64,000 nucleotides of DNA from Endomicrobium sp. (lineage in GTDB: Bacteria > Elusimicrobiota > Endomicrobiia > Endomicrobiales > Endomicrobiaceae), in the NCBI GenBank assembly GCA_031261715.1, contig JAISJB010000001.1, forward strand, positions 124,001 to 188,000. The letters run 5' to 3'. Shown here one piece after another: positions 2,925-41,710 of the stretch. The notes under the pieces were generated by a model. It saw only the letters and a list, made by a program, of their open reading frames with translations. It did no database searches and was not told the origin of the DNA. A program made the position numbers and the translations under genes. Position 1 is the stretch's first letter, and every line of letters starts with the position of its first letter.

Positions 2925-4169
2925 TTAATCGTCTGTAAAAGTAAATTGATAATTCCCAATTTGAATAATATCACCGTGTTTTGCTCCACTTTTTTTTAAT
3001 TCTGATTTTAAGCTTAATCTTTCAATTATGTTATCATAATAGTATTTTAATATATTGATGTTATTATGCTTTGTTATTAATGTATAAAATGGTTTAGTCT
3101 TTCTTCCTGTAACAATAAATTTTCCGTTTGCTATGTTAATTTGTAAATCAGCCTTATAAATATATTGTTTAATATTAATATTACTTTTATTGTGTATATT
3201 GTTTATTGTTTGTATTTTCTCTAAACTTTTAACTATTTCCTTAATTAAACTATTAATACCTTGATTTGTTACTGTAGAAACTTCAATTATTTTATTATAC
3301 TGTTGCTTGACTAAATATTTTTTAAACTGATTGATAAATTTATTTTGCGAGCAACATAAATCAATTTTATTTAATACTATTATAATTACTTTATCTTGTA
3401 TTTCTTTTGAGTATTGTGTTAATTCAGAGTTGATTATATTATATTTTAGATATATATTCTCATCTTTATTATAATCTATTACATATAGAAGAACTTTAGT
3501 ACGATAAATATGTTTTAAAAATTTTAACTTTCTTTCCTTCATTATAGCTGGAATATCTACAACTATAAAATTTTTAACATTATTTCTTAACACTCCTAAA
3601 TTAGGAAATAAAGTTGTAAATGGATAATCTGCTATTTTGGGTTTAGCATTAGAAATTTTGGAAAGTAGAGAAGATTTTCCAGAATTTGTTAAACCAATTA
3701 TTCCCACATCTGCTATTAAACGTAAATCAAGTTTAACTTTACTTGACTCACCTTGACTACCTCTTTCAGCAATTAGTGGATTCCTTTTATAAGTTGCATT
3801 TCCTCGACCGCCACTACCTCCCTTAGCAATTAATAGTTTCATTCCAAGTGTAGTAACATCTGCTATTAAATGTTCATTTTTCCAAATCATAGTTCCTAAA
3901 GGAACTTTAATTATTGTATCTGTTCCAGATTTCCCTGACTTATTATATTTATTTCCTTGTGTTCCATTTTCTGCAATAAATTGTAAATTTTGTGTAAGTT
4001 TTGATAATGTATTATTGCAAAGATCACTTTCGAAATAAATATCTCCACCTCTACCTCCATGTCCTCCAGTAGGTTCTTTATGAGTACTATATTTCTGTTT
4101 ATCAAAATATAATCCTCCACTTCCACCATTGCCAGCTTTAAGATAAATAATGACTTCATCTATAAACAT
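2925..4169 (-). CDS. obgE: Obg-family GTPase (ribosome assembly/stress), altered switch II
   Basis: GTPase associated with 50S maturation and the stringent response. I place the start at the internal ATG at 4169 (MFIDEVIIYLKAG), the family's normal opening. The longer open frame to 4277 overlaps rpmA and adds an unrelated hydrophobic stretch. Domains: glycine-rich Obg fold (about 1-157; GNGGSGG, GGHGGRGGD), G domain with P-loop GLTNSGKSS, switch I YPFTTL, NKID, and a C-terminal OCT domain ending near IGNYQFTF. The oddity is G3/switch II: the usual DIPG followed by a GlxEGAxxGxGLG loop is replaced by DIPAIMKERKLKFLKH, so the motif glycine is alanine and about six residues are missing. Function may be weakened or altered. 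It is cotranscribed with rpmA and rplU, a conserved trio. Confidence 0.95.
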   Translation of the reverse strand: MFIDEVIIYLKAGNGGSGGLYFDKQKYSTHKEPTGGHGGRGGDIYFESDLCNNTLSKLTQNLQFIAENGTQGNKYNKSGKSGTDTIIKVPLGTMIWKNEHLIADVTTLGMKLLIAKGGSGGRGNATYKRNPLIAERGSQGESSKVKLDLRLIADVGIIGLTNSGKSSLLSKISNAKPKIADYPFTTLFPNLGVLRNNVKNFIVVDIPAIMKERKLKFLKHIYRTKVLLYVIDYNKDENIYLKYNIINSELTQYSKEIQDKVIIIVLNKIDLCCSQNKFINQFKKYLVKQQYNKIIEVSTVTNQGINSLIKEIVKSLEKIQTINNIHNKSNINIKQYIYKADLQINIANGKFIVTGRKTKPFYTLITKHNNINILKYYYDNIIERLSLKSELKKSGAKHGDIIQIGNYQFTFTDD

Positions 4170-4176
4170 ATAAATA

Positions 4177-4425
4177 TTAAAAAACACTAATATAATGCTT
4201 ATTACGTGCTTTTCTAATAAATTGTACGGTACCAGTAATTTTAGCAAAAAGAGTATTATCTTTCCCCATTCCAACATTTTTCCCAGGATGATATTTTGTC
4301 CCTCTTTGTCGTACTATAATAGCACCTGCTACTACTTTTTGATTCCCATATATTTTAACTCCAAGTCTTTGTCCATGAGAATCACGTCCATTTGTAGATG
4401 ATCCTTGAGCTTTTACATGGGCCAC
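4177..4425 (-). CDS. rpmA: Large ribosomal subunit protein L27
   Basis: L27 reaches the peptidyl-transferase centre through its N-terminal tail. The 82 residues begin [16 protein letters not shown] and contain [11 protein letters not shown], both characteristic. There is no Firmicutes-type N-terminal extension ending in a Prp cleavage site, which is useful taxonomically. The histidine after MA is kept. It sits between rplU and obgE with short spacers, in the standard order. Confidence 0.97.
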
Positions 4426-18731: not shown

Positions 18732-19328
18732 TTAATCTTCTCCAATACAGAATCGTGAAAACCTTTTTACAGAAATATTTTCTCCTAATGTAGAAATTGA
18801 ATTTAATAGTAAATTTTTTATTGTTAAAGTTTTATTATTATCTCTAATATAAATTTGATCATACAAACATACTTGACTATAAAACTTTTCCAACTTCCCA
18901 TTAATAATTTGTTCCCATATATCTTTATTAATTTTGCTTGTTGTCAGTTGATCATAATATATTTGTTTTTCTGATTCTATTACTTTCAATGGTATTTGTT
19001 GTCGTGATATATAAATCGGATTCATAGCAGCAATTTGCATAGCAATTTCTTTGACAAAGTTAATAAAGGATTCGTTCCTAGCAACAAAGTCGGTCTCACA
19101 ATTAACTTCAACAAGAACGCCTAAGCTATTATTATTATGTATATAGGAATAAATAATTCCATTATTTGTAACTCTATTAATTTTTTTTATAGATCCCGTC
19201 AGACCTTTTTTTCTTAGCAATTGACATGCTTTATCTAAATTATTATTTGATTGTTGTAATGAAAGTTTGCAAGCCATAATGCCTGCTCCTGTCATTTGTC
19301 TAAGTTTAATTATTAATTCAGTTGACAT
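18732..19328 (-). CDS. tsf: Translation elongation factor Ts (short form)
   Basis: Guanine-nucleotide exchange factor of EF-Tu. 198 aa, the short version with one core subdomain, as in several non-proteobacterial lineages; the E. coli form is 283 aa. N-terminal UBA-like region [16 protein letters not shown], then the core motif [16 protein letters not shown], conserved across EF-Ts proteins. The C-terminus ends with [12 protein letters not shown]. Overlaps rpsB by 11 nt. Confidence 0.95.
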
Positions 19329-20097
19329 TATTTATATTAGGCTCCTCTATAGTGTTATTACTTTCTGAATTTATAGTACTATCACTCTTGCTTTTTATAT
19401 TATCATTTTTATCAATAAGATACTTACCTTCTAAAACTGCATCTGCAATTGTTGAACAAAAAAGTTTTACAGCCCTTATAGCATCATCATTCCCTGGTAT
19501 AGGATAATCAATTAAATCAGGATCACAATTAGTATCACAAACTGCAATTATTGGAATTTGTAATTTTTTAGCTTCTGAAATTGCAATAATTTCTTCATTA
19601 GGATCTACAACAAAAATTAAACCAGGTAAAGCATACATATTTTTAAGACCTTCTAAAGATTTATCAAGACGTACTAACTCTTTTTCAATTTGTAAACGCT
19701 CTTTTTTAGAAAGCATTGAAAATATATTGCTTTGTTTTAAGATTTCCATATCTCTATATTTTGCAAGTGATTTCTTTAATGTATCAAAATTTGTTAGTGT
19801 ACCACCAAGCCATCTTTTTGAAACAAAATGTGCACCACAACGTGAAGCTTCTTCTCTGATAGCAAATTGTGCTTGTTTTTTTGTTCCTATAAATAAAATA
19901 TCTTTACCTTCTAGTATCAAATTTTTAACAACTTTATAATTCTTTCTTAATTCTTTTAAAGTTTGTTGTAAATCAATTATATGTATTTTACTTCTAGTCC
20001 CAAAAATATATTTCTTCATTTTTGGGTTCCATTTTCGAGTTTGATGTCCAAAATGAACTCCAGCTTCTAATAACATTTTCATTGTAATATTTACCAT
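19318..20097 (-). CDS. rpsB: Small ribosomal subunit protein S2
   Basis: 30S protein near the head/body junction. 259 aa. Conserved [47 protein letters not shown] and [11 protein letters not shown], then a low-complexity Ser/Asn tail (about residues 229-259) that is outside the fold. First gene of the rpsB-tsf-pyrH-frr-fd-uppS-cdsA block. GGAGATGTCTT leads into the ATG. A 70-bp AT-rich spacer separates it from purQ and may contain the block's promoter, but I see no convincing hexamers. Confidence 0.97.
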
Positions 20098-20167
20098 AAG
20101 ACATCTCCATTAGATTCAATTTTATAAACAATTAATGCATTAAAATTATTATTCAAATTTATAATTT

Positions 20168-20947
20168 TTATTTACAAAAATTAACAGCATTTTGAAAAAC
20201 AATTTTACCATATCCATATTCTTCCTTAACATTATTACGTACAGGATGTTGTAAAGCTAAAACGTATCTTTCAGGATGTGGCATCAAGCCAAAAACATTT
20301 CCTTGTTTGTTACATATACCAGCTATTCTGCTTATTGAGCCATTTGGATTTAAAGGATAATCTGGAATATTACCATCTTGTGAAGAATATCTCAAAACAA
20401 CCTGATGATTTATATTTAAATCATCTATGAGTTGTATATTTATAGGAATGAATTTACCTTCACCATGTGCTACAGGCAAAGTTATTATATTAGGTAAATT
20501 TTTAGTCCATATACAATTAGATTCTTGCTCTATTCGTAAATAAATCCAGCGACATTCAAATTGGCCAGAATCATTATAATATAAAGTAGACACTTGGTCA
20601 CATCTATCTGAATATGGCAGTAAGCCCATTTTTACCAATACTTGAAAACCATTACATATACCTATAATTGGCTTTCCACTTAATGCAAATTTTCTTATTT
20701 GATCTCCTAATATGTTTTTTAATTCATTTGCTAATACTTTGCCAGATGATATATCATCTCCATAAGAAAAACCACCAGGCAAAACTAAAATGTCGTACTC
20801 AAACATTTTAGTTTTTGTAACTATAAGCTTATTAATATGTAAACAATCCACATGAGCTCCACAAAGTTCAAAAGCAAACTTTGTTTCATATTCACAATTA
20901 GTGCCAGCAACTCTTAAAATTAATACTTTCACTTTAGTGTTAATCAT
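20168..20947 (-). CDS. purQ: Phosphoribosylformylglycinamidine synthase, glutaminase subunit
   Basis: Class I glutamine amidotransferase supplying ammonia to PurL for the fourth step of purine synthesis. 259 aa, longer than the ~225 aa Bacillus PurQ and closer to the C-terminal domain of fused enzymes. Nucleophile Cys in IGICNGFQVLVKMG; catalytic His/Glu in MPHPERY. Also VLPGGFSYGDDISSGK, part of the glutaminase fold. It follows purL by 7 nt in the purC-purS-purL-purQ run. Confidence 0.96.
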   Translation of the reverse strand: MINTKVKVLILRVAGTNCEYETKFAFELCGAHVDCLHINKLIVTKTKMFEYDILVLPGGFSYGDDISSGKVLANELKNILGDQIRKFALSGKPIIGICNGFQVLVKMGLLPYSDRCDQVSTLYYNDSGQFECRWIYLRIEQESNCIWTKNLPNIITLPVAHGEGKFIPINIQLIDDLNINHQVVLRYSSQDGNIPDYPLNPNGSISRIAGICNKQGNVFGLMPHPERYVLALQHPVRNNVKEEYGYGKIVFQNAVNFCK

Positions 20948-29369: not shown

Positions 29370-30713
29370 TTACTTATAATTTCCCTTTATCATTCCTTGT
29401 TTTTCTTTTTTCCAAGTAAAGGCAATTAAAATCATAGATAATATACAACAAAAATAACATGTTATAAATATACCATTCCAGCTATGTTTCTCTAAAATTT
29501 TACCTAATAACCCAGTCAAAATAGCTCCAAAATATCCAAACATTCCAGTAAAACCACAAGCAGCAGAAATAGATTCTTGTGCTGTTACACGTGATACATA
29601 TAATCCTCCTATAATAGTTTGAGGCCCTGCTACACAAAAACCAACTAATGCAAAAAATAAACCTATAATAAAAGGAGATGTAGTAGCATATGTATATTTT
29701 TGCATACCCCATAATCCAAATATTAAACCGATTAGATATATAATAATAACTGGAGCACAGCGTCCTTTAAAAAATTTTTCTGAACACCATCCAGATAATA
29801 ATCCTCCAAAACTACCTACCAAAGGCATAAATGTCAATAAAAAAGCTGCAGTATGATTTGCAATGCCTCGCTGTGACATAAACAGCGTGCCCCAATTAAG
29901 AGGAAACCAGCGTATAAAATATATAAATATATAACTTATTGATAATATCCATATATAAAAATTACAAAAAACATATTTTTTCAAAATTTCAAAATGTGAC
30001 ATATTTGTTTTGTTTTTTATCACTGGAGGGTCGTTACGATAAATATCAATAGGTGGTAAGCCAACAGAGGCTGGTTTGTCTGTCAGAACAAGTAATAAAA
30101 TTATTACTGTAAATAAGCCAAGTATACCAGGTAAATAGAATGCTGCACGCCAACTACCATACTTAATAGATAGTGCAACCAAGACTCCTATTAGTGAAGA
30201 CCCAATTGTATGAGATGTTGACCATAAACTCCATTTTGTTGCTCTTTCAGTTGGTGAAAACCAATAAACCAATCCTTTTGCTGCTGGTGGATAACCCATT
30301 GATTGGAATATTCCATTAACACCCCATAGTAATGCTAACAGTGAAACTGATGGAACAAATCCAAATACCAAATTTATTATGGAGGAGCCTAATAAACCAA
30401 CAGACATAAAAGCTCTTATATTACATTTATCAGCTAAGACTCCACTAACAAATTTACCAATTCCATATGTAATAAACAATGCCATTGTAATATATCCAAA
30501 TTTAGAGGCTGTAATATGATAAGTTTCCATCATAGATGGAGTAGCATAATTAATATTAGTACGTGTAAAGTAATAAATTACATAAGCAAAATACATACCA
30601 CAAAACATTCTTATGCGCCAAGATTTATATTTTTTTTTAAGTTCTTCGTCATTTTTAAAAAGTACTTCACGGTTTGGAAGTGGTTTCATCCAATTAACAA
30701 ATTTTTTTAACAT
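29370..30713 (-). CDS. uhpC: Organophosphate:phosphate antiporter (UhpC/UhpT/GlpT family)
   Basis: Twelve-helix MFS transporter that exchanges sugar-phosphate or glycerol-phosphate for inorganic phosphate. 447 aa from the ATG at 30713; an upstream ATG at 30731 is part of its GGAGG site. The N-terminal loop WRIRMFCGMYFAYVIYYFTR with conserved Arg, the signature NGIFQSMGYPPAAKGLVYWFSPTERATKWSLW (seen as GIFQSMGYPP and PTERATKWS), and the central loop fit the OPA family; within it the sequence is nearest UhpC/UhpT. Exact substrate (glucose-6-phosphate or other) cannot be told. This is the clearest hint that the cell lives inside a host supplying phosphorylated sugars. Codon use is somewhat less AT-rich than its neighbours. 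Confidence 0.9.
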   Translation of the reverse strand: MLKKFVNWMKPLPNREVLFKNDEELKKKYKSWRIRMFCGMYFAYVIYYFTRTNINYATPSMMETYHITASKFGYITMALFITYGIGKFVSGVLADKCNIRAFMSVGLLGSSIINLVFGFVPSVSLLALLWGVNGIFQSMGYPPAAKGLVYWFSPTERATKWSLWSTSHTIGSSLIGVLVALSIKYGSWRAAFYLPGILGLFTVIILLLVLTDKPASVGLPPIDIYRNDPPVIKNKTNMSHFEILKKYVFCNFYIWILSISYIFIYFIRWFPLNWGTLFMSQRGIANHTAAFLLTFMPLVGSFGGLLSGWCSEKFFKGRCAPVIIIYLIGLIFGLWGMQKYTYATTSPFIIGLFFALVGFCVAGPQTIIGGLYVSRVTAQESISAACGFTGMFGYFGAILTGLLGKILEKHSWNGIFITCYFCCILSMILIAFTWKKEKQGMIKGNYK

Positions 30714-30753
30714 TTTTATATTGTCCTCCATTATTTTACTGCATTAATTTGAT

Positions 30754-39144: not shown

Positions 39145-40542
39145 TTATTTATTATGATTATATTCATTTTTTTGTACAAACAACTTATAAACTATATAAA
39201 TAAACAGTAGCCAAACTAAACTTAAAATTGACATACGTGTTTCTTTATTTACAAATAATAGATAGGTTGTTAATATCAGAGCTAAAATAGCTATATAATT
39301 GGAGTACGGATAAAACAACATTGGATATTTCAATTTAGATATTTCTTCATGAGTTTTGTTTTTACGTGATTTCATTTGAACCACAACTATAACTCCAAAA
39401 ATCCAAATACCAAGAGCAGTAGAAATCCCAGCAAGAATCATAAAAACATTATCAGGCATTATATAATTAAGCATAACCCCTATTAAAGAAACAAAAAATG
39501 AGAATATAATACCATTTGCAGGAATTTTATTTGAATTTAATTTACCTAGAAATTGTGGAGCATGATTTTGCAAAGCTAAATTATAAAGCATTCTGCCATT
39601 ACTAAACATTCCACTATTACAAGATGATAATGCTGCAGTTATTACAACAAAATTAATTATTGCTGCTGCTTGTTTAATTCCTAATCCAGAAAATGTTGCA
39701 ACAAAAGGACTGCCTGATACGCCACTTCCCTTTGTAATATTCATCCAAGGATAAATACACATAAGGACAAACATTGTGCCTACATAGAAAAATATCATAC
39801 CTCCTAATACTTTATTTATTGACGAAGGAATACTTTTCTCAGGATTTCTAACTTCTCCTGCTGTTACTCCAATAAATTCAATGCCTACAAAAGCTAAAAT
39901 TACCATTCCTAAAGACCTAAGAACTCCTGATATACCAAACGGAAAAAAACCACCTTTAAGAGCATATAAATTATGTAATCCTATTATTTTACCACCATTT
40001 CCTAATCCTAGGAATATCATAGCCAATCCAACAAGAACAATTAATACAATAGTAACAACTTTTATTAATGAAAACCAAAATTCTATTTCTCCAAACATTT
40101 TTATACTAAATAAATTTGCACACATTATGCATAACAACGATAGTAAACCTGGTATCCATTGAGGTAACTCAGGCCACCAAAAACTACAATATATACCAAC
40201 AGCTGTTACTTCTGTCATACTACTAACTACCCAAAGAAACCAATAAGTCCATCCTACCATAAACCCTGCACATGGACTTATAAATTTATTAGCATATGCA
40301 CTAAATGAGCCAGTTATAGGGTTTTCTACAGCTACTTCACCTAAAGCGCGCATAATAAAATATACGATACATCCACCTAATAAATATGATAGTAACAAGG
40401 ATGGTCCAGCAGATGCAATAGCACTTCCAGAGGCTAGAAATAAACCAATTCCAACTGCTCCTCCTATTGCAATTAATTGCACATGTCGTTCACTTAGACC
40501 TCGTTGTAAATTTTCACCTTCACTATCAGACTGCTTTTTCAT
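39145..40542 (-). CDS. Amino-acid permease, APC superfamily (AAT family, ProY/GabP-like)
   Basis: Twelve-helix amino acid:proton symporter. 465 aa from the ATG at 40542, chosen because AAAGGGAGG precedes it; the frame to 40581 would overlap carA. Typical family opening: LQRGLSERHVQLIAIGGAVGIGLFLASG, with the unwound-helix motif GGAVGIGLFL, then GEVAVENPITGSFSAYA, and FVGIEFIGVTAGEVRNPEKSIP. These are close to gammaproteobacterial ProY/AroP/GabP-type permeases; substrate cannot be fixed. It is less AT-rich than neighbours in places and separates carA from carB, which suggests insertion, perhaps by transfer. Ends in its own terminator. Confidence 0.88.
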   Translation of the reverse strand: MKKQSDSEGENLQRGLSERHVQLIAIGGAVGIGLFLASGSAIASAGPSLLLSYLLGGCIVYFIMRALGEVAVENPITGSFSAYANKFISPCAGFMVGWTYWFLWVVSSMTEVTAVGIYCSFWWPELPQWIPGLLSLLCIMCANLFSIKMFGEIEFWFSLIKVVTIVLIVLVGLAMIFLGLGNGGKIIGLHNLYALKGGFFPFGISGVLRSLGMVILAFVGIEFIGVTAGEVRNPEKSIPSSINKVLGGMIFFYVGTMFVLMCIYPWMNITKGSGVSGSPFVATFSGLGIKQAAAIINFVVITAALSSCNSGMFSNGRMLYNLALQNHAPQFLGKLNSNKIPANGIIFSFFVSLIGVMLNYIMPDNVFMILAGISTALGIWIFGVIVVVQMKSRKNKTHEEISKLKYPMLFYPYSNYIAILALILTTYLLFVNKETRMSILSLVWLLFIYIVYKLFVQKNEYNHNK

Positions 40543-40555
40543 TATACCTCCCTTT

Positions 40556-41710
40556 TTATAATAACTTGACAAAATAATCAATTATCCATGAAGTATCATT
40601 TGGACCACTTGAAGCTTCAGGATGAAATTGAACTGATATAAATGGTTTTGTTTTATGTATTAAGCCTTCTACAGAATGATCATTAGCATTTTCAAACCAT
40701 AAATTCCAATCAGGTTGAATAGAATGTCTTTCAACAGAATATCTATGATTTTGACTTGACATATAAGCTTTTTTTTCTGGCAGAGAGAAAACTGGTTGAT
40801 TATGACTTCTATGGCCATGAGCAAGTCTTTTTGTATCTGCTCCAGTTGCAAGAGCTAATAATTGATGTCCTAAGCAAATTCCTAAAATAGGTTTAGTTTT
40901 ATTGACATTTAAAATATTGTTACGTATTCTCTTGACTAAATCACCAGTGTTTTTAGGATCTCCTGGCCCATTACTAATAAGCCATCCATCACAATCTATA
41001 TGTGCAAAATTATTATCCCACGGTAATAATTCAACTTTACAATTTCTGTCTATAAGCATTCTAAGAATATTCCATTTTATACCACAGTCAACAACTGCTA
41101 CTTTCCTTTTTGCATATTTATTACCCATGATAATTTTGCTTTTTGTTGAGATTGATGGCATTAAATTATATTTTGATGGATCTACATATTCATTACTATT
41201 AAACTTATTTAAAAAATAAAATTTATTATGGGTTTGTATTACAGAGTCATCAGTAAAAATTTTGCCAAACAAATTTTTACTTTTGCGTACTAATTGTACT
41301 AAATATCTAGTATCAACCCCTGCAATACCAGGAACATCTTGACTTTTCATCCATGATTCAAGCGAAACTCCTCGATCATGGTGATAAGCTTCATCATAAA
41401 GATTTGATACAACAATACCCTGTGTTTTAATTGATGAACTTTCATGTCCCTTAGACATAAATAAATTTCCATTTTTTGGGATAGGAATCCCATAATTCCC
41501 AATCATGCAAAAACTAAAGACAAGTATTTGCCCTAAGTATGATGGATCTGTCATAGCTTCACTATAACCTAACATACCAGTATTAAATACCATTTCTCCA
41601 GTAACTTGTTTATTCGCTCCAATTGCAATACCTGAGAATTTAATGCCATTAGATAATTGTAAGTAAGCCTTTTTGACATTTCTAGTTAGTCTATAACTGT
41701 GTTTTACCAC
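40556..41710 (-). CDS. carA: Carbamoyl-phosphate synthase small (glutaminase) subunit
   Basis: Hydrolyses glutamine for CarB. 384 aa. N-terminal half with KAYLQLSNGIKFSG and FNTGMLGYSEAMTDPSY; class I amidotransferase half with nucleophile Cys in LGICLGHQLLA, and catalytic His/Glu in VQFHPEASSGP. GHRSHNQPV and SSQNHRYSV also resemble the Bacteroidetes/eukaryotic lineage, in line with CarB. It lies 31 nt from the glutamate synthase operon and could be read through from it. Confidence 0.94.
   Translation of the reverse strand: MVKHSYRLTRNVKKAYLQLSNGIKFSGIAIGANKQVTGEMVFNTGMLGYSEAMTDPSYLGQILVFSFCMIGNYGIPIPKNGNLFMSKGHESSSIKTQGIVVSNLYDEAYHHDRGVSLESWMKSQDVPGIAGVDTRYLVQLVRKSKNLFGKIFTDDSVIQTHNKFYFLNKFNSNEYVDPSKYNLMPSISTKSKIIMGNKYAKRKVAVVDCGIKWNILRMLIDRNCKVELLPWDNNFAHIDCDGWLISNGPGDPKNTGDLVKRIRNNILNVNKTKPILGICLGHQLLALATGADTKRLAHGHRSHNQPVFSLPEKKAYMSSQNHRYSVERHSIQPDWNLWFENANDHSVEGLIHKTKPFISVQFHPEASSGPNDTSWIIDYFVKLL

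What the first reader, a model, noticed from the sequence alone, without database searches (positions are those of the whole stretch)
2925..4169. ObgE with a damaged switch II (DxxG to DIPA and a shortened loop)
The G1, G4 and OCT regions are intact but G3 reads DIPAIMKERKLKFLKH where Obg proteins have DIPG followed by a GxxEGAxxGxGLG loop. The motif glycine is Ala and about six residues are gone. This is the catalytic and conformational switch of an essential GTPase, so either hydrolysis is lost with binding kept, or the lineage uses a different switch.
Basis: partly seen in the sequence, partly recalled or inferred. Interest (0 to 1): 0.55.

Follow-up and report, generated by a model that had tools for sequence, protein, structure and literature searches.

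The report
Obg protein with an eroded switch
In a bacterium with a very small genome, the ribosome-assembly protein Obg has lost the glycine and most of the flexible loop that normally make it a GTP-driven switch, although its gene is still intact; the nearest relative has lost the same glycine, so this looks like real evolutionary erosion and not a sequencing error.

Summary
The obg gene (2925-4169, minus strand, 414 codons, next to rpmA and rplU) reads DIPAIMKERKLKFLKH where relatives read DIPG[IL]IEGAHxGKGLGxEFLRH: the G3 glycine is Ala and six residues are missing. Of 41 genus genomes, 38 have an Obg; 36 keep the glycine, the exceptions being the window and its sister G049 (Pro, full-length loop). 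In a phylum screen an Obg anchor with any codon at that place matches 309 of 340 genomes, with a Gly codon 308; the one lost is the window's. The nine other GTPase domains that PF01926 finds in this genome, and seven read in G049, keep DxxG. The same pair has altered the Obg tip that touches the peptidyl-transferase centre. The gene is under purifying selection (rough dN/dS 0.36) but is among the faster genes. Best reading: a genuine Obg orthologue whose switch II is degenerating stepwise during genome erosion; nucleotide binding probably kept, hydrolysis and switching probably weak or lost. Published E. [quoted passage not shown] The functional part is inference: no biochemistry, and the structure prediction failed.

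The parts
2925..4169 (-). obg coding sequence, 414 codons plus stop
   Evidence: Obg by Pfam and NCBIfam TIGR02729
3510..3557 (-). degenerate G3/switch II, DIPAIMKERKLKFLKH (residues 205-220); DxxG Gly is Ala208; six residues missing
3672..3695 (-). G1 / P-loop GLTNSGKS (residues 159-166), one invariant Pro changed to Thr
3612..3626 (-). switch I YPFTT (residues 182-186), intact
3360..3371 (-). G4 NKID (residues 267-270), intact
4068..4106 (-). loop 1 of the Obg fold (FDKQKYSTHKEPT, residues 22-34), rewritten as in G049
3759..3800 (-). loop 3 of the Obg fold (NATYKRNPLIAERG, residues 124-137), four residues shorter, conserved Arg139 (E. coli numbering) is Leu
2937..3128 (-). OCT / DUF1967 C-terminal domain (residues 348-411), weak match
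4177..4425 (-). rpmA (ribosomal protein L27), next gene upstream
   Evidence: PF01016 122.2 bits
4472..4795 (-). rplU (ribosomal protein L21), upstream of rpmA
   Evidence: PF00829 105.3 bits

Best explanation
This is the orthologous, still intact Obg of a bacterium with a severely reduced genome, in which the GTP switch is degenerating step by step. Shown: the G3 glycine is lost in the window species (Ala) and in its sister G049 (Pro), most simply in their common ancestor; the window species has also lost six codons of the glycine-rich loop behind it, so none of the five glycines of that segment is left; the 50S-contacting tip has changed in the same pair; the reading frame is intact and selected. 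Inferred: the protein still folds and binds guanine nucleotide and Mg2+, but without the glycine's contact to the gamma-phosphate and without the mobile loop GTP binding no longer flips switch II, and hydrolysis is slow or absent. The cell keeps it as a nucleotide-bound or nucleotide-indifferent 50S factor whose regulation by GTP, GDP or ppGpp has become unnecessary.
For: Orthology: TIGR02729 over cut-off, gene order rplU-rpmA-obg, the only Obg found in the genome. Shared loss: Gly in 36 of 38 genus Obgs, Ala in the window, Pro in G049; G049 groups with the window in 7 of 7 protein trees of six or seven taxa (support 0.996-1.000). Specificity: 9 of 9 other PF01926 domains in the genome keep DxxG, 7 of 7 read in G049 do. 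Selection: open frame, codon-position identities 0.69/0.80/0.59, NG86 dN/dS 0.36. Kept residues: switch-I Thr, DxxG Asp, NKID. Precedent (papers, passages): Ras G60A has drastically impaired intrinsic GTPase (PMC4867591); in E. [quoted passage not shown]
Against: No activity was measured; the structure prediction was poor (pLDDT 41.6). The genome is 79% complete, so a second Obg could be unseen. The basic 50S-contact residues R24 and R139 are also changed, so 50S binding itself may be weaker and the gene may be losing function altogether. Obg is not uniquely accelerated: 4th of 41 window proteins in stem rate, 10th of 41 in dN/dS. The excess of lost invariant sites in switch II holds for the window (6 of 11 against 5 of 60) but not for G049 (3 of 11 against 8 of 60). 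Lack of RelA/SpoT is nearly genus-wide (39 of 41 genomes without a match), so it does not explain why only two species changed.
Confidence: 0.62

Rival explanations
1. The gene is on its way out: Obg is becoming dispensable in the most reduced members of the genus, and this is an intermediate of gene loss with little remaining function.
For: Obg is damaged in other small genomes too: in G020 it lies in two frames with a stop, in G052 loop 1 lacks six residues; G002, G008 and G021 show no Obg; loops 1 and 3 and switch II are all hit in the window.
Against: Frame open over 414 codons and in G049; dN/dS near 0.36, similar in the three domains; most invariant residues outside switch II kept (55 of 60). 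G002, G008 and G021 are 78, 52 and 52% complete, so absence there is weak. A survey reports obgE in over 99% of symbionts and parasites (PMC12641178, passages).
Confidence: 0.2
2. A different but working switch: the basic KERK loop or a nearby residue replaces the glycine-rich loop, so the protein still cycles with GTP.
For: The new loop is rich in Lys/Arg and nucleotide-contacting motifs are kept.
Against: The sister has a different residue (Pro) and a loop of normal length without the basic run, so no new design is conserved; no structural support could be obtained.
Confidence: 0.12
3. Assembly or sequencing artefact.
For: The genome is a draft in 5 contigs, 79% complete, and reads were not available.
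Against: The change is a Gly to Ala substitution, an exact in-frame loss of six codons and further substitutions in an open frame; the sister genome lacks the same Gly.
Confidence: 0.03

Closest known systems
Obg / ObgE / CgtA (TIGR02729; solved 1lnz, 1udx, 5m04, 4csu)
   Same: Obg fold, G domain, OCT domain, G1, switch-I Thr, G4, operon with rplU and rpmA
   Different: No G3 glycine, switch II loop six residues shorter, loop 1 rewritten, loop 3 four residues shorter; the five solved chains whose alignments were printed all have the Gly
Ras G60A (laboratory mutant of the equivalent DxxG glycine)
   Same: Gly to Ala at DxxG
   Different: A point mutant of a eukaryotic G protein with loop length unchanged; known here from passages of PMC4867591
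PseudoGTPases (for example degenerate septins, PMC10731463, seen only as a listing with the start of the abstract)
   Same: Natural loss of catalytic G-motif features in a retained protein
   Different: Eukaryotic cytoskeletal proteins; loss of hydrolysis is not shown here
YchF (nearest other Obg-like GTPase in this genome)
   Same: G domain with DIAGIIKGASNGEGLG switch II
   Different: Switch II intact in the window genome and in G049

Membership tests
Obg/CgtA orthologues | N-terminal Obg fold (PF01018) | tested here: met
   141.4 bits, full profile 1-155
Obg/CgtA orthologues | NCBIfam equivalog score | tested here: inconclusive
   TIGR02729 333 over 280.25 and NF008956 328.7 over 300, but NF008955 376.7 under 406 and NF008954 285.4 under 377
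Obg/CgtA orthologues | C-terminal OCT domain | tested here: inconclusive
   PF09269 31.2 over 27; TIGR03595 29.1 under 37.65
Obg/CgtA orthologues | Gene order rplU-rpmA-obg | tested here: met
   L21 and L27 immediately upstream
Canonical Obg GTPases | G1, G2 and G4 motifs | tested here: met
   GLTNSGKS (one invariant Pro changed), PFTT, NKID
Canonical Obg GTPases | G3 DxxG with glycine | tested here: not met
   DIPA; Gly in 36 of 38 genus Obgs and 308 of 309 caught in the phylum
Canonical Obg GTPases | Glycine-rich switch II loop of normal length | tested here: not met
   16 instead of 22 residues from D to H, no glycine
Canonical Obg GTPases | GTP hydrolysis stimulated by 50S | not testable with these tools
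   needs purified protein
PseudoGTPase | Loss of a catalytic G-motif residue | tested here: met
   G3 glycine absent in two sister species
PseudoGTPase | Retained under selection | tested here: met
   open frame, rough dN/dS 0.36
PseudoGTPase | No measurable hydrolysis | not testable with these tools
   needs an assay

The most novel reading that the evidence does not exclude
A natural separation-of-function Obg: an essential bacterial ribosome-assembly 'GTPase' that has lost its GTP switch and reshaped its peptidyl-transferase-probing tip, yet still does its essential job. That would show in nature that Obg can work as a non-switching factor.
Probability: 0.33. Interest if true: 0.65.

Novelty: new variant of a known kind. 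Interest (0 to 1): 0.45.

Why it matters
Obg is kept in nearly all bacteria and is called an essential GTPase, yet whether its essential job needs GTP hydrolysis is unsettled. A lineage that keeps obg under selection while discarding the DxxG glycine and the switch II loop is a natural test case: if the protein still matures 50S subunits without hydrolysing GTP, the switch is a regulatory add-on. It also shows in which order an assembly factor comes apart during extreme genome reduction.

Tried and rejected
Sequencing error: rejected because the sister genome has lost the same Gly and the frame is open. Decay of all GTPases in the genome: rejected, since the 9 other PF01926 domains found keep DxxG. 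A second, normal Obg: none found, but the assembly is 79% complete. Loss of alarmone synthesis as the cause: RelA/SpoT matches in only 2 of 41 genus genomes, so the loss is too widespread to explain a change in two species; kept as permissive context only. 'Obg is exceptionally accelerated': it has the longest stem of seven GTPases (0.51 against 0.28-0.42), but my wider control weakened this: 4th of 41 window proteins in stem rate and 10th of 41 in dN/dS (the top dN/dS row probably compares non-orthologues). Fisher test: the region was chosen after seeing the data, and the deleted columns are probably one event, so p = 0.001 is only descriptive; G049 alone is not significant (p 0.36). Rows dropped there: six (one broken, two partial or split and its duplicate, two further duplicates), and window and G049 were kept out of the reference set.

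Dead ends: AlphaFold2 on an alignment of three sequences gave pLDDT 41.6 and was not used; no fold search was run. The first pattern search had a gap of the wrong length and found nothing; corrected. A paper search for CgtA with G216A found none. I recall laboratory mutants of Caulobacter CgtA in the G motifs but read none and do not use them. No call names the window's organism.

Full report
What is there. The gene at 2925-4169 on the minus strand encodes 414 residues starting MFIDEV. It follows rplU and rpmA (L21 105.3 bits, L27 122.2 bits), the usual bacterial order (recalled). It is an Obg by Pfam and NCBIfam (PF01018 141.4 bits, TIGR02729 333 bits over a cut-off of 280.25), and its best solved relatives are the Obgs of 1lnz, 1udx, 5m04 and 4csu. 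The genome has 483,639 bases in 5 contigs, is 79% complete, and shows one Obg. G3 reads DIPAIMKERKLKFLKH; other members of the genus read DIPG[IL]IEGAHxGKGLGxEFLRH with small variations. Aligners place the six-residue gap either after DIPAIM or after DIPAIMKERK; in both, none of the five glycines of the segment is left.

How unusual it is. Of 41 genus genomes (own included), 38 have an Obg; G002 and G021 show only weak YchF-like hits and G008 none, at 78, 52 and 52% completeness. I read G3 in all 38: Gly in 36, Ala in the window, Pro in G049 (DMPPIIQNSHIGKGIGCKFLKH, loop length normal). In 340 genomes of the phylum, an Obg pattern anchored on switch I at the usual spacing and open at the glycine codon matches 309; requiring a Gly codon it matches 308, and the genome that drops out is the window's. 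The 31 genomes not caught by the anchor, G049 among them, are not covered by that count.

Is it real and specific? G049 groups with the window species in trees of Obg, Der, MnmE, FeoB, YchF, IF2 and LepA (support 0.996-1.000 in 7 of 7 trees, each of six or seven chosen genomes), so the glycine was most simply lost once, before or apart from the loop deletion. In the window genome the 9 other domains that PF01926 finds keep DxxG (two in Der; MnmE, FeoB, YchF, IF2, EF-G, LepA, EF-Tu); GTPases outside that model, such as Ffh and FtsY, were not looked at. YchF keeps a switch II loop of normal length. In G049, 7 of 7 readable domains keep it. These protein names are mine from the sequences. The damage is specific to Obg among those tested.

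Selection. Between window and G049, Obg codon positions are 0.69, 0.80 and 0.59 identical; NG86 gives dN 0.31 and dS 0.86 (ratio 0.36, with another alignment, 0.357), and by domain 0.39 (Obg fold), 0.36 (G) and 0.28 (OCT) (ratios taken from its values). dS is high and the window has 28% G+C, so these are rough. Of 86 window ORFs, 43 had reciprocal best matches in G049, G050 and G046, and 41 had at least 80 shared columns; among these 41, Obg is 10th in dN/dS and 4th in stem acceleration. It is a fast gene under purifying selection, not a free-running pseudogene. Of 71 columns invariant in 48 reference Obgs, the window has lost 6 of 11 in switch II and 5 of 60 elsewhere; G049 3 of 11 and 8 of 60; three other small genomes 0 of 11, 1 of 12 and 1 of 12 in switch II.

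The other end of the protein. In E. coli ObgE, three tip loops of the Obg fold touch the peptidyl-transferase centre, and mutations in loops 1 and 3 (K27E/K31E, R136G/R139G) nearly abolished 50S binding (PMC4028186, passages). In 45 reference Obgs of this phylum R24, R25, K27, K81 and R139 are basic in 42-45, while K31, R76, R82 and R136 mostly are not. The window has Asp for R24, Lys for R25, keeps K27 and K81, and has Leu for R139 in a loop 3 four residues shorter; G049 keeps R24, K27 and K81, has Lys for R25 and Ile for R139. Both replaced the two glycines after position 31 (Lys-Glu, Arg-Glu). G052, another small genome, lacks six residues of loop 1 but keeps switch II. So Obg is eroding at several places in the smallest genomes of this genus, and in the window's pair at both functional ends.

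Mechanism. Kept residues argue for nucleotide and Mg2+ binding; the lost glycine and loop argue against switching and hydrolysis. Ras mutants including G60A are described as drastically impaired in intrinsic GTPase (PMC4867591, passages). In E. coli, of the three nucleotide-binding-dead alleles of a toxic ObgE variant, two (N283I, D286Y) supported viability and one (G166V) did not; [quoted passage not shown] Normal ObgE is slow, about 0.027 per minute, and about 120-fold faster with 50S (PMC4028186). A switch-dead Obg is therefore plausible and may be tolerable. The step from sequence to lost activity is inference.

Organism. No call names it. A genus of 41 held species of 0.2-1.4 Mb, relatives in the same family of 1.0-2.4 Mb, low G+C, and my recollection of what such a partial 16S looks like fit Endomicrobiellum, flagellate endosymbionts of termite guts in Elusimicrobiota (PMC11257099, abstract, passages and sections 10 and 14). 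That paper's main text does not contain 'GTPase'. I hold this at about 80%.

Novelty. The listings of searches for Obg with switch II and DxxG, pseudoGTPase and Obg in reduced genomes (12 of 14 shown) show no title or abstract beginning that reports an Obg without the glycine; of those papers I read passages of two (PMC6912228; PMC12641178). PMC12641178 reports obgE in over 99% of symbionts and parasites, counting presence and not motifs in the passages seen. I rate this a new variant of a known kind. By descent it is an Obg; because the G3 features were tested and not met, I do not file it as a canonical Obg GTPase.

Noticed in passing
all 41 genus genomes: No listed match to the Era model (E up to 1e-20) reaches beyond model position 193 of 270; the matches lie in frames that look like Der or MnmE, although 28 genomes pass the cut-off by adding tandem domains. 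Era, normally near-universal, may be missing from the whole genus.
   Followed up: partly
41 genus genomes: RelA/SpoT synthetase domain matched in only 2 of 41 genomes (G018, G004), so (p)ppGpp signalling seems nearly gone in the genus.
   Followed up: partly
L053 (G052:C2:20000-30000), obg: Obg with normal switch II but six residues of the peptidyl-transferase-probing loop 1 missing.
   Followed up: partly
L035 / L054 (G020:C2, about 19177-20431): Obg lies in two overlapping frames with one stop (residues 1-83 and 67-412), in a 200 kb genome: a broken gene or an assembly slip.
   Followed up: no
L061 (G024:C147:3664-4684): Obg in two frames with residues about 212-264 missing, in a 2.1 Mb relative of the same order; possibly an assembly fault.
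   Followed up: no
window 39148-40581 (-): Amino acid permease (PF00324) that is 96% identical to G049 and 86% to G050 but 45% to the G046 match over shared columns, far above the rest of the window; perhaps spread by transfer or a paralogue in G046.
   Followed up: partly
window 29373-30743 (-): Major facilitator transporter (PF07690), 87% identical to G049 and 69% to G050 but 51% to G046; the next most alike gene between the two sisters.
   Followed up: no
G000, G049, G050, G046, G020: A short GTPase of about 195-264 residues (probably YsxC/EngB, name from length only) is seen in 7 of 11 relatives but has no full-length match in these small genomes.
   Followed up: no
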